From an uncultured bacterium (GTDB lineage: Bacteria > Elusimicrobiota > Elusimicrobia > Elusimicrobiales > Elusimicrobiaceae): 51,217 nucleotides of DNA. Below, one piece after another: positions 1 to 32,055 of this stretch. The DNA lies in assembly GCA_949297775.1 (NCBI GenBank), contig CASFTM010000014.1, positions 1-51,217 on the forward strand, in the 5' to 3' direction. Made by a program: the position numbers and the translations under genes. Numbering within the stretch: position 1 is the stretch's first letter; every line of letters starts with the position of its first letter. Below the pieces are notes generated by a model. That model was not told where the DNA came from. It did no database searches and saw only the letters and a program-made list of their open reading frames with translations.

Positions 1-41
1 TTTTTGATAAATTTTGCGTATGAGCAAAATTTATCAAAAAA
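1..41. repeat. Palindrome with pilin start codon in its loop
   Basis: Positions 1-17 pair perfectly with 24-40, and base 41 would pair with a T just outside the window. The six-base loop 18-23 contains the ATG at 20-22. The stem is AT-rich and is not followed by a T-run in either direction, so it is not an ordinary terminator. It could be an operator at DNA level or a translation-controlling hairpin in the mRNA. No Shine-Dalgarno is visible. Confidence 0.9.
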
Positions 42-91
42 CCCACCCGGCGGGGAAAAACGCCGGATTTACGCTAATAGAGCTGTTAGTG
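1..91 (+). repeat. 91-bp direct repeat, copy 1 (pilin leader cassette)
   Basis: Positions 1-91 are identical, base for base, to 15630-15720. The identity runs across the poly-T end, the start codon and the first 24 codons of two prepilin genes, then stops abruptly. This copy touches the window edge, so the repeat may extend further upstream. No other prepilin gene in the window shares it at nucleotide level. Confidence 0.95.
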
Positions 92-15177: not shown

Positions 15178-15253
15178 GCGCGGCATTTCTAAAATAGTGT
15201 GGCCCCATTAGTCGTGTTAACGGGCATAGAGCGGGGAGCCCAGCTTTTGGGCC
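15178..15253 (+). repeat. Dispersed stem-loop repeat, copy A
   Basis: Begins GCGCGGCATTTCTAAAA, continues AGTGTGG...GTGTTAACGGGCATAGAG, and ends in a GCCCA/TGGGC hairpin with a GCTTT loop. Shares these blocks in order with the units at 22928-23270 and 31965-32040. Confidence 0.85.
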
Positions 15254-15278
15254 CTTTTTCTGGCACCAGAAAAAGGGC
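15251..15278. repeat. 28-bp near-perfect palindrome
   Basis: 13-bp perfect arms (15251-15263 with 15266-15278) around a two-base centre. It directly abuts the hairpin of repeat copy A. Confidence 0.9.
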
Positions 15279-15289
15279 GAAAAAGAGTG

Positions 15290-15418
15290 CCGGCCCAAGG
15301 CCCCATAAAAATCACTTTCAAGCGGGAAATTTTATAACTCGCGCGGGTTCCCCGCGCTCAGACAATAAAATTTCTTCTCCGCTTGGAAGGCTTTTTATAG
15401 ACGGGGCAAAAGGGCCGG
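15290..15418. repeat. 129-nt long imperfect hairpin element
   Basis: Outer arms CCGGCCC (15290-15296) and GGGCCGG (15412-15418) pair perfectly. Inside, GCCCC/GGGGC, ATAAAAA/TTTTTAT, TTCAAGCGG/CCGCTTGGAA and GAAATTTTAT/ATAAAATTTC pair in register with small bulges, capped by GCGCGGG/CCCGCGC. It could be a miniature inverted-repeat element or a structured RNA. No target-site duplication recognised. Confidence 0.7.
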
Positions 15419-15423
15419 ATAAA

Positions 15424-15471
15424 CGGCAACAGCAACAGCAACAGCATAAGCGTAAGCGGAAACGGAAACGG
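15424..15471 (+). repeat. Degenerate hexanucleotide tandem repeat
   Basis: Period-six tract: AGCAAC repeated, drifting through AGCATA, AGCGTA and AGCGGA to AACGGA and AACGGC. About eight units. No gene spans it convincingly. Confidence 0.8.
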
Positions 15472-15485
15472 CTTCCTTTTGAATA

Positions 15486-15553
15486 GTGCGGCATTTCTAA
15501 AACGTGTGGCCCAGCTAGTCGCGTTAACGGGCATAGCGTGCCTGCCCCGGCAA
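15486..15553 (+). repeat. Dispersed stem-loop repeat, copy B
   Basis: Starts GTGCGGCATTTCTAAAACGTGTGGC, contains GCGTTAACGGGCATAG, and ends in a short TGCC/GGCA hairpin. Tandem with copy C. Confidence 0.75.
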
Positions 15554-15558
15554 GGGGG

Positions 15559-15613
15559 GTGGCTTAAACTAATCGTGCTAACGGGCATAGAAAGGGGAGG
15601 CCAAGCTTTGGCC
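15559..15613 (+). repeat. Dispersed stem-loop repeat, copy C (5'-truncated)
   Basis: Lacks the GCGGCATT block and begins at GTGGCTTAAACTAATCGTG. Ends in a perfect GGCCAA-GCT-TTGGCC hairpin (15599-15613), followed after about nine bases by T12-GATA and then the pilin leader. The tract after the hairpin matches that after unit 4 of the 22928 array. Confidence 0.8.
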
Positions 15614-15622
15614 CTTGACGCG

Positions 15623-15634
15623 TTTTTTTTTTTT
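15623..15634 (+). repeat. T12 homopolymer tract upstream of pilin start
   Basis: Twelve T residues followed by GATA, 14 bases before the ATG at 15649. The same T12-GATA occurs at 23272-23287, and the window itself opens with T5-GATA in the equivalent position. Confidence 0.9.
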
Positions 15635-15670
15635 GATAAATTTTGCGTATGAGCAAAATTTATCAAAAAA
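15629..15670. repeat. Palindrome with pilin start codon in its loop, copy 2
   Basis: An 18-bp perfect stem (15629-15646 with 15653-15670) around a GTATGA loop that contains the ATG at 15649. Same sequence as 1-41. Confidence 0.95.
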
Positions 15671-15720
15671 CCCACCCGGCGGGGAAAAACGCCGGATTTA
15701 CGCTAATAGAGCTGTTAGTG
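15630..15720 (+). repeat. 91-bp direct repeat, copy 2 (pilin leader cassette)
   Basis: Identical to 1-91. Identity ends exactly at the Val codon where the hydrophobic helix of the other gene continues but that of this gene is missing. Confidence 0.95.
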
Positions 15721-16116
15721 ATGGCGGTTATGAAGTCCCGCTTGTCCACGATGCGCACGGTGCTTGAAAACCTGCACAGAGCCGAAGAAGTTTTTTATAT
15801 GGCTAACGGGTATTACGAAGCGAATACGGACAAATTGGATTTTGATTATAAAGGCTCCTGCACGGGAACGGATGTTTTAAAATGTGGCAATTTCTTTTAC
15901 GTGGACATCATAAACGGCAGCGGTGTAGTGACGGATCCGGGCAAATTGCATATCAAAGCTTCTTATTGCGTGGATACGGAAACCCTTTCCGAATGTTCGC
16001 CTGATTTTTCATACTATGTGTGGTTTGATAATTCTTCCAACCCTGGATTACGGACTTGCATAGGAAATAATGAGAAAGGCAGAAAATTCTGTAATATTAT
16101 AAACGCAGAAAATTAA
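15649..16116 (+). CDS. Chimeric prepilin lacking the hydrophobic helix
   Basis: A 155-aa protein with the same 16-residue leader and FTLIELLV start as the gene at 20-538, but the chain then jumps to MAVMKSRLSTMRTV. Against the usual pilin order, about 17 residues (VVLIIGILAAVALPQYT in the sister gene) are missing in frame, which removes most of the transmembrane/assembly helix. The rest of the gene is an intact pilin head with TC-x10-C near the C-terminus. It has its own terminator. As read, it could be processed but hardly anchored in the membrane or packed in a filament. It may be a decayed pilin, a silent donor cassette, a secreted head domain, or an assembly error across the repeat. Confidence 0.8.
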   Translation: MSKIYQKTHPAGKNAGFTLIELLVMAVMKSRLSTMRTVLENLHRAEEVFYMANGYYEANTDKLDFDYKGSCTGTDVLKCGNFFYVDIINGSGVVTDPGKLHIKASYCVDTETLSECSPDFSYYVWFDNSSNPGLRTCIGNNEKGRKFCNIINAEN

Positions 16117-16339: not shown

Positions 16340-16354
16340 TATAATTTGTATATG
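16340..16354 (+). promoter_or_regulatory. -10 element fused to start codon; leaderless candidate
   Basis: TATAAT at 16340-16345 is followed six bases later by the ATG at 16352, exactly where transcription would begin. No Shine-Dalgarno is present. The 15-base block TATAATTTGTATATG recurs with two changes before kdsA (31838-31852, minus). The -35 is not convincing. Confidence 0.45.
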
Positions 16355-22927: not shown

Positions 22928-23275
22928 GGGCGACATTTCCAAAACAGTGTGGCTCAATTAATCGTGTTAACGGGTGAAGGGAAGGGAGCACCGGCTCGGT
23001 GCCGTTGCGCAAGGGCGCGGCATTATGGGAACAGTGTGGATCAATGAATCGTGTTAACGGGTGAAGGGAAGGGAGCACCGGCTCGGTGCTGTTGCGCAAG
23101 GACGCGGCATTCCTAAACTAGTGTGACCCAATTAATCGTGTTAACGGGTGAAGAGAAGGGATCACCGGCTCGGTGCCGTTGCGCAAGGGCGCGGCATTCC
23201 AAAACAGTGTGGCTCAATGAATCGTGTTAACGGGTGAAGGAAAGGGAGCCCAGGCTCTGGGCCTTGATTTGTTTT
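22928..23275 (+). repeat. Tandem array of four 87-bp stem-loop repeats
   Basis: Units start at 22928, 23015, 23102 and 23189, exactly 87 bp apart. Each has GCGCGGCATT-like, CAGTGTGG, AATCGTGTTAACGGGTGAAG and AAGGGAGC blocks, a hairpin, and (units 1-3) GTTGCGCAAGG. Hairpins: units 1 and 2 GCACCG-GCT-CGGTGC; unit 3 the same with its outer pair lost; unit 4 GCCCAG-GCT-CTGGGC. Unit 4 ends instead in CTTGATTTG and T12-GATA. Nothing else is visible in the gap between etfA and the pilin at 23370 apart from this array and a promoter. There are no unique spacers, so it is not a CRISPR array. Confidence 0.95.
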
Positions 23276-31935: not shown

Positions 31936-32055
31936 GGAGCCCAGGCTTGGGCTGTTGCGTAAGAGCGCGGCATTTCTAAAACAGTGTGGCTTAAACTAGT
32001 TGTGTTAACGGGCATAGAGAGGGGCGGGCAAGCTTTTGCCCCGGCTCGGTGCCCT
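31936..32055 (+). repeat. Dispersed stem-loop repeat, copy D with partial copies
   Basis: A 3' unit fragment (31936-31964: AGCCCA-GGCT-TGGGCT hairpin then GTTGCGTAAGAG), a full unit from 31965 (GCGCGGCATTTCTAAAACAG, GTGTTAACGGGCATAG, hairpin GGGCAA-GCTT-TTGCCC), then a fragment CGGCTCGGTGCC. It lies between the divergent kdsA and O-antigen-ligase-like genes, in the same orientation as the latter. Apart from this repeat I see nothing in 31901-32117. Confidence 0.85.

What the first reader, a model, noticed from the sequence alone, without database searches (positions are those of the whole stretch)
15251..15418. 28-bp palindrome next to a 129-nt long hairpin
Two strongly self-complementary elements follow each other: a 13-bp-arm palindrome and a hairpin with 7-bp perfect outer arms and at least five further paired blocks in register. 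They are larger and more regular than terminators. Together they resemble a miniature inverted-repeat element or a structured non-coding RNA.
Basis: partly seen in the sequence, partly recalled or inferred. Interest (0 to 1): 0.5.

Follow-up and report, generated by a model that had tools for sequence, protein, structure and literature searches.

The report
Dispersed DNA hairpin beside pilin genes
The palindrome and long hairpin are one copy of a repeated, probably mobile, non-coding element that a group of gut bacteria can carry dozens of times, in this genome mostly in front of surface-pilin genes, and whose stem sequences change freely while staying self-complementary.

Summary
Together they are one unit of a repeat family: 28 model hits in this genome, hits in 38 of 66 genomes of the genus. 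Pairing is conserved by compensatory change (26 of 50 pairs; slid controls 7-12). In this genome the unit sits in arrays of an ~86-bp repeat, with a pilin gene downstream in 19 of 22 copies tested and in the window. Elsewhere in the genus it also precedes unrelated genes and is present or absent between species at one site. The same architecture (palindrome, repeated half-site, long stem, AACTCGC...GCTCAAACA tip) occurs in a Variovorax plasmid and some viral contigs. Stems are almost purely Watson-Crick; G-U against A-C counts give no consistent strand. Best reading: a REP/MITE-like DNA hairpin repeat amplified here inside spreading pilin cassettes, moved by an unknown enzyme (no Y1 transposase found). 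RNA on either strand stays open.

The parts
15178..15245 (+). C repeat unit (about 86-bp tandem family, with a small hairpin of variable stem at its end)
   Evidence: nhmmer map; 108 C matches in the own-genome loci fetched
15251..15278 (.). A: 28-bp palindrome, 13-bp arms, 2-nt loop
   Evidence: sequence; the repeat finder; upstream of the hairpin in most copies tested
15279..15285 (+). second copy of the palindrome's half-site (GAAAAAG; CAAAAAG or CAAAGAAAG in other copies)
   Evidence: sequence; same layout by eye in copies printed
15290..15418 (.). B: 129-nt long hairpin
   Evidence: folds; covariation; CM R1 match 155.8 bits at 15286-15424 (the window copy is one of the sequences the model was built from)
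15336..15364 (.). tip of B with the conserved signature AACTCGC...GCTCAGACA (GCTCAAACA in many copies)
   Evidence: alignment A1; pattern matches
15420..15480 (+). short-repeat tail (CAACAG/CGGAAA units) ending GGCTTCCTTTT, seen by eye after B in sibling arrays printed
   Evidence: sequence
15486..15539 (+). C repeat unit, truncated
15559..15607 (+). C repeat unit, partial, next to D
15625..15719 (+). D: conserved segment with a T12 tract, a palindrome whose loop holds the start codon (ATG 15649), and the first codons of the pilin
   Evidence: T12 in 52 of 61 matches of length 7 or more
15649..16116 (+). prepilin-like gene of the D class; this copy lacks about 20 aa of the N-terminal helix that its paralogues have
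   Evidence: translation against paralogues

Best explanation
15251-15418 is one copy of a dispersed, non-coding hairpin repeat that works mainly at the DNA level. Shown: a fixed architecture (palindrome, repeated half-site, long stem with conserved internal and tip sequences) in many copies; stems that change sequence while staying almost purely Watson-Crick paired; presence or absence at the same site between species; in this genome, location inside C-repeat arrays, mostly in front of pilin genes. Inferred: that it acts as DNA; that the copy here came with a pilin cassette (array plus gene) inserted between the trigger-factor gene and its neighbour; that copies multiply mainly by duplication of, and homologous recombination between, such arrays, and more rarely by an unidentified recombinase acting on the extruded or single-stranded hairpin. 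The arrays would then act as landing sites through which variable pilin genes are gained and lost.
For: 28 CM hits in this genome and hits in 38 of 66 genus genomes, own included (at most 50 candidates scored per genome, so lower bounds). Covariation: 26 of 50 pairs and 219 cells changed on both sides, against 16.4 and 64.7 in shuffles and 7-12 and 22-62 in slid structures. Wobble rare: over 17 sequence clusters 706 Watson-Crick, 12.7 G-U, 23.0 A-C, 52.7 other. Pilin downstream on the same strand in 19 of 22 own copies, 16 of 26 in relatives, 6 of 20 in a third set. The same array without the unit in this genome and with it in relatives: L173 against L056, L060, L065, and window 31979 against L186. 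Rubredoxin site filled in 6 and not filled in 13 of the 19 genomes I chose to fetch, out of 61 with a match there. Whole array plus pilin absent between the same two genes in the 9 closest relatives examined, 9 of 9. At the L045 locus, array alone in three genomes and array-pilin-array in G020.
Against: No recombinase or transposase is tied to the element; the Y1 family is absent from the genome. Target duplications and exact ends could not be read because flanks have diverged. In the 48-copy set G-U does exceed A-C once one never-pairing tip column is left out (45 against 27; 65 against 18, or 27 against 18 without one column, in the RNAalifold structure), as a + strand RNA would show. In the diverged clusters A-C exceeds G-U (10 clusters against 2) and the minus strand folds better in 26 of 28 representatives, as a minus-strand RNA would show. 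Compensatory change and co-directional downstream genes (16 of 20) also fit a transcribed element. Five species share a copy upstream of one gene, more like a retained functional piece than a fresh insertion.
Confidence: 0.42

Rival explanations
1. A structured RNA read from the minus strand: the long hairpin followed by a pyrimidine/U-rich stretch (CTTTTTG) and the palindrome as a second hairpin, acting as a small RNA or a terminator of antisense transcription.
For: Minus strand more stable in 26 of 28 cluster representatives, mean -46.5 against -41.3 kcal/mol; A-C mismatches on + (G-U on minus) exceed G-U in 10 clusters against 2; conserved tip and internal-loop sequences with free stems.
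Against: Within the 48-copy alignment the strands are nearly equal in energy (+ better in 20 of 48, mean -58.9 against -59.9) and the wobble bias is the other way; the tip motif shared by all copies may by itself give the energy bias; a few of the 28 representatives look like chance coding hits; no Rfam family reaches threshold; no expression data.
Confidence: 0.2
2. A structured 5' leader RNA on the + strand that controls the downstream gene, mostly pilins.
For: 19 of 22 own copies lie 175-561 nt upstream of a pilin motif on the same strand; downstream gene co-directional in 16 of 20 of the third set; stable + strand fold, z -7.8 against -5.4 for minus; G-U above A-C in the 48-copy set after leaving out one tip column.
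Against: The opposite wobble bias in the diverged clusters; copies in relatives that precede unrelated genes or have no prepilin motif within 1.3 kb; antisense hairpins in the same arrays (L040, L042, L046, L047); 31 of 51 D-class pilins have no hairpin mapped within 1.5 kb upstream, at least three of these being cut by contig ends; segment D has an AT-rich promoter-like stretch at the start codon (by eye).
Confidence: 0.17
3. A classical MITE: palindrome A is the end of a terminal inverted repeat, the full element being A-B...B'-A', moved by an IS transposase that is now missing.
For: Inverted A-B...B'-A' arrangements seen by eye in L042 and L047, L215 and L216; both hairpins in opposite orientation also in L040 and L046; high copy number, intergenic sites.
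Against: Most own loci have a single hairpin followed by the tail and C or D; a palindrome within 60 nt (110 nt for the far set) downstream of B in 0 of 19, 0 of 26, 1 of 20 and 0 of 12 copies; no target duplication seen; no Y1 transposase, other transposase families not searched.
Confidence: 0.13
4. Ordinary bidirectional terminators or insulators between genes.
For: Hairpins in intergenic spaces, in several cases shortly after an upstream gene's stop codon.
Against: Far longer than a terminator, two-part architecture, conserved tip sequence; no T run directly after B on the + strand.
Confidence: 0.05

Closest known systems
Bacterial MITEs and ERIC/RU-type repeats (PMC10969869: outline and its section '2. 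Prokaryotic MITEs' read; PMC2759123: search listing and start of abstract only)
   Same: Short, multi-copy, intergenic, strong stem-loop, present or absent at given sites
   Different: No terminal inverted repeats bounding most copies, no target duplication seen, no parent IS found; stems differ completely between some copies while tip and internal-loop sequences stay
REP/REPIN elements with RAYT transposases (PMC3116915: abstract and outline read)
   Same: Dispersed extragenic hairpins that can form in single-stranded DNA; paired inverted copies occur
   Different: No Y1 (RAYT-type) transposase in this genome; unit about 170-230 bp with a conserved tip motif
Integron attC sites (recalled, no source read)
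   Same: Long imperfect hairpin with free stem sequence and conserved unpaired features, next to exchangeable gene cassettes
   Different: Lies upstream of single dispersed genes rather than in tandem cassette arrays; the core-site sequence recalled for attC was not seen by eye; no integron-specific search was made (6 PF00589 matches in the genome, not classified)
Stem-loop sequence families of Cozzuto et al. 2008 (PMC2267715: abstract, outline and the section 'Characterization of specific families' read)
   Same: Repeated intergenic sequences with a shared predicted structure, foldable on both strands
   Different: The families named in the part I read are from other genera; its full list of 92 families was not compared

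Membership tests
MITE | Length typically under 500 bp, multi-copy, intergenic | tested here: met
   A plus B 168 bp, about 230 with tail; 28 CM hits in the genome; intergenic in the loci examined
MITE | Non-coding | not tested
   Inferred from indels and compensatory changes in A1; no coding-potential test was run
MITE | Terminal inverted repeats bounding the element | tested here: not met
   Palindrome upstream of B in most copies, within 60 (110) nt downstream in 0/19, 0/26, 1/20, 0/12; A-B...B'-A' only in a minority of loci
MITE | Target-site direct repeats | tested here: inconclusive
   Empty and filled sites too diverged to read ends
MITE | Related autonomous IS or transposase | tested here: inconclusive
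   Only PF01797 (0 hits) and PF00589 (6 hits, not tied to the element) were searched
REP/REPIN | Associated RAYT (Y1 tyrosine transposase) | tested here: not met
   0 matches to PF01797 in this 97% complete genome; 5 of 14 control genomes ring
Structured RNA family in Rfam 15 | Match at or above a family's gathering score | tested here: not met
   Only two tRNAs in the window; 16 sub-threshold matches in 15230-15680, all far below their gathering scores
Cis-regulatory or small RNA in general | Pairing kept with wobble pairs on the transcribed strand | tested here: inconclusive
   48-copy set: G-U 45, A-C 69 of 2265 cells, but 42 of the 69 come from one never-pairing tip column, leaving 45 against 27; RNAalifold structure 65 against 18 (27 against 18 without one column). 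17 clusters: 12.7 against 23.0, the other way
Cis-regulatory or small RNA in general | A transcript | not testable with these tools
   No RNA-seq available here for this genome
Integron attC | Recombination by an integron integrase at a conserved core site | not tested
   No integron-specific profile was run; the six PF00589 matches were not classified

The most novel reading that the evidence does not exclude
A bacterial hairpin element shared across phyla (Elusimicrobiota, a Variovorax plasmid, viral contigs) is the substrate of an undescribed single-strand hairpin recombination system. It keeps only the palindrome, internal loops and tip, lets stems drift with pairing kept, and in gut Elusimicrobiota has been coupled to pilin cassettes, so that dozens of variable surface pilins are shuffled through hairpin arrays.
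Probability: 0.1. Interest if true: 0.85.

Novelty: new variant of a known kind. Interest (0 to 1): 0.5.

Why it matters
If right, it gives a well-defined hairpin repeat class, not found in Rfam or in my paper searches, with a clear signature and relatives in distant bacteria, and a concrete model for how a small gut genome with 87 prepilin-motif hits spreads and exchanges pilin genes. Strains with long-read genomes would make the DNA-versus-RNA question and the search for the responsible enzyme directly testable.

Tried and rejected
REP/RAYT origin: dropped for this genome, no Y1 transposase. Rfam family: none. Phase variation by the T tract of segment D: the tract is 12 long in 52 of 61 matches of length 7 or more (overlapping loci may count twice); 30 further matches of length 6 I take to be the other arm of the same palindrome. 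A pilin-specific leader: weakened, since the same unit precedes other genes elsewhere; the names trmL and rubredoxin for two of them are mine, read from the protein sequence, and come from no call.

My first reading of the wobble test ('A-C at least equals G-U, hence not a + strand RNA') did not hold: a recount showed that 42 of the 69 A-C cells lie in one tip column that pairs in hardly any copy. I lowered the DNA reading from 0.5 to 0.42, raised the + strand leader from 0.12 to 0.17 and lowered the novel case from 0.12 to 0.10.

The tip pattern AAACTCGC-N(0-14)-GCTCAAACA in viral contigs gave 79 stretches, about what I estimate (no call) chance would give in that much DNA. Most look coding or chance: 3 of 79 fold at z below -4 (40 single-base shuffles each). 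Those loci were chosen by the tip, so their CM scores are partly circular; L308 was chosen by the palindrome. Not chosen that way: the palindrome of L258 (three copies), L293 and L303, two of the three L258 hairpins, and both L308 hairpin hits. In the far set the palindrome was found in 6 of 12; the misses are L217 (a palindrome lies further upstream, by eye), L252, and the four hits of family f16 that I checked (L218, L219, L220, L222), whose membership is doubtful. BLAST with a viral-contig copy hit mainly the palindrome in 13 plasmid records (Burkholderiaceae, Pasteurella, Ilyobacter, Chitinibacter); in L304-L306 I saw no such hairpin after it. Window element against plasmids: no match; L293 against phages: no match; L258 against plasmids: no match.

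Literature: searches found no description of this element or its sequence strings in the held library, judged from listings; most subscription papers are not held, and the E. minutum genome paper (recalled, PubMed id 19270133) was not held. So 'undescribed' means only not found in those searches.

Rows dropped: alignment A1 holds 48 of the 55 near-full copies; the own list is 22 copies (antisense partners, contig-end pieces and the window's own copy left out; by the sequence the window's pilin motif lies about 280 nt downstream). In one search the regular expression missed the prepilin start by eye in L209, one copy (L192) had only 229 nt downstream, and 3 of 26 and 2 of 20 have a prepilin motif on the other side and strand instead. 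In one search some of the 28 representatives (L227, L255, L277, L287) look like chance coding hits.

Full report
What is there. The window is contig C14 of a 1.69-Mb, 32-contig genome. Its relatives by the neighbouring trigger-factor gene are mostly records titled uncultured Elusimicrobiales or Elusimicrobium, one of them Candidatus Avelusimicrobium; a genus name for the window is my inference. The reported palindrome (15251-15278) and hairpin (15290-15418) are exact and far from chance. On both sides lie units of an about 86-bp repeat (C). Downstream comes a conserved segment D: a T12 tract and a palindrome whose loop holds the start codon 15649 of a prepilin-like gene.

A repeat family. BLAST with 15230-15440 finds 53 places in the genome, pieces and antisense matches to the palindromes included, and matches in 10 of 41 genomes searched, own included, all 10 in the same genus. 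A profile map of the own-genome loci I fetched gives 28 hairpin matches of at least 90 model positions (38 with fragments), 18 palindromes, 108 C units and 56 D segments. The covariance model R1 finds 28 hairpins in this genome, up to 42 in a relative, and hits in 38 of 66 genus genomes (at most 50 candidates scored per genome). Phylum-wide it hits 36 of 294 genomes, three of them outside the genus (stricter filters in both). Of those three, G101 (L217) is a good match by sequence and tip; the four hits I checked in the other family lack the palindrome.

Order and context. In the own genome the usual order is C, A, B, C(n), D, pilin on one strand; antisense second hairpins occur in L040, L042, L046 and L047, and single parts are missing in many loci. 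The genome has 87 prepilin N-terminal matches. Of the 51 with segment D, 41 have C, 20 have B and 12 have A within 1.5 kb upstream; of the 36 others, 5 have C and none has B. A prepilin motif follows within 1.3 kb on the same strand for 19 of 22 own copies tested, 16 of 26 copies in close relatives and 6 of 20 copies in a set chosen mostly from low-copy or diverged genomes. In that last set the unit stands upstream of a trmL-like gene in five species, before a rubredoxin-like gene in two, and before other genes (gene names mine). The pilin link is thus a feature of some lineages, not of the element as such.

Conservation of pairing. In 48 aligned copies (of 55 near-full ones) 93.7% of cells pair, 26 of 50 pairs show double changes (shuffled 16.4, slid 7-12) and 219 cells are changed on both sides (shuffled 64.7, slid 22-62) (the structure is the window's own fold, which favours it over slid versions on cells paired). 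At the rubredoxin site the filled genomes carry clearly different stems in the same architecture (G058, G019a, G001, G012 against G019b and G068, with G056 a third version; G019, a MAG, shows two versions on two contigs).

RNA or DNA? Wobble pairs are rare, about 2% of cells or less on either strand apart from single columns. Their bias is not consistent. In the 48-copy set G-U 45 against A-C 69, but 42 of the 69 come from one tip column that hardly ever pairs, leaving 45 against 27; the RNAalifold structure gives 65 against 18, or 27 against 18 without one column. Over 17 clusters of 64 distinct copies it is the other way: 12.7 against 23.0 with 706 Watson-Crick, and the minus strand folds better in 26 of 28 representatives, partly or wholly through the shared tip motif. 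In the 48-copy set the two strands have about equal energies. I favour a DNA-level hairpin because pairing is so nearly Watson-Crick and no strand wins throughout, but RNA on either strand remains possible.

Movement. Between the trigger-factor gene and its neighbour the 9 closest relatives examined lack array and pilin; this shows gain here or repeated loss there, and gain is simpler. At L173 and at window 31979 this genome lacks A-B where three relatives and one relative, respectively, have it in the same array. At the rubredoxin site 6 of the 19 genomes I fetched (of 61 with a match) are filled and 13 are not, some of the latter having other spacers. At the L045 locus this genome and two relatives have an array without a pilin, where G020 has array-pilin-array, as expected if a cassette recombines in or out through the repeats; this step is inference.

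Beyond the phylum. Viral contigs L258 (three hits), L293 and L303 and a Variovorax paradoxus plasmid (L308, two hits) match R1 at E 2e-7 to 2e-3 over 92 sources, of 18 matches up to E 0.1 in all. The palindrome, which is not in the model, stands before the hairpin in all six copies of these four loci tested; for L308 the palindrome was how the record was found, for the others it was not. In 71 other sources (797 kb) R1 found only the window (both strands), one same-genus locus (L078) and one marginal hit, L094 at E 0.085. Most loci were chosen by the tip pattern, so the breadth of the family needs an unbiased search.

Verdict. A real, repeated, probably mobile hairpin family, REP/MITE-like in behaviour but not meeting their defining tests where these could be made, and linked here to a large, spreading pilin family. 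The mechanism is uncertain; confidence 0.42.

Noticed in passing
15649-16116 (+): The pilin downstream lacks about 20 residues of the N-terminal helix that its paralogues share, and no Pfam family matches it at E 0.001.
   Followed up: partly
15625-15719 (+): Segment D: start codon in the loop of a palindrome behind a T12 tract next to GATAAATTTT; shared at high identity by dozens of pilin genes; looks by eye like a promoter close to the ATG (possibly leaderless).
   Followed up: partly
16340-16354 (+): The next gene shows TATAAT six bases before its ATG, also in eight of nine relatives printed (the ninth print stops before the ATG), again suggesting leaderless transcription.
   Followed up: no
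whole genome; window 1-91: 87 prepilin N-terminal matches in 1.69 Mb; several contigs, including this one, begin or end inside D or the hairpin repeats.
   Followed up: partly
22930-23256 and 31965-32033 (+): Further C-repeat arrays: four units before a pilin without segment D, and one unit before a gene without prepilin motif.
   Followed up: partly
L304, Caballeronia plasmid pNK81: A palindrome with repeated half-site (AAAGAAAGTAACCAAAGAAAG type) matches at 18 places of this record; in the one copy I read no long hairpin of this kind follows. It may be an older or separate repeat.
   Followed up: partly
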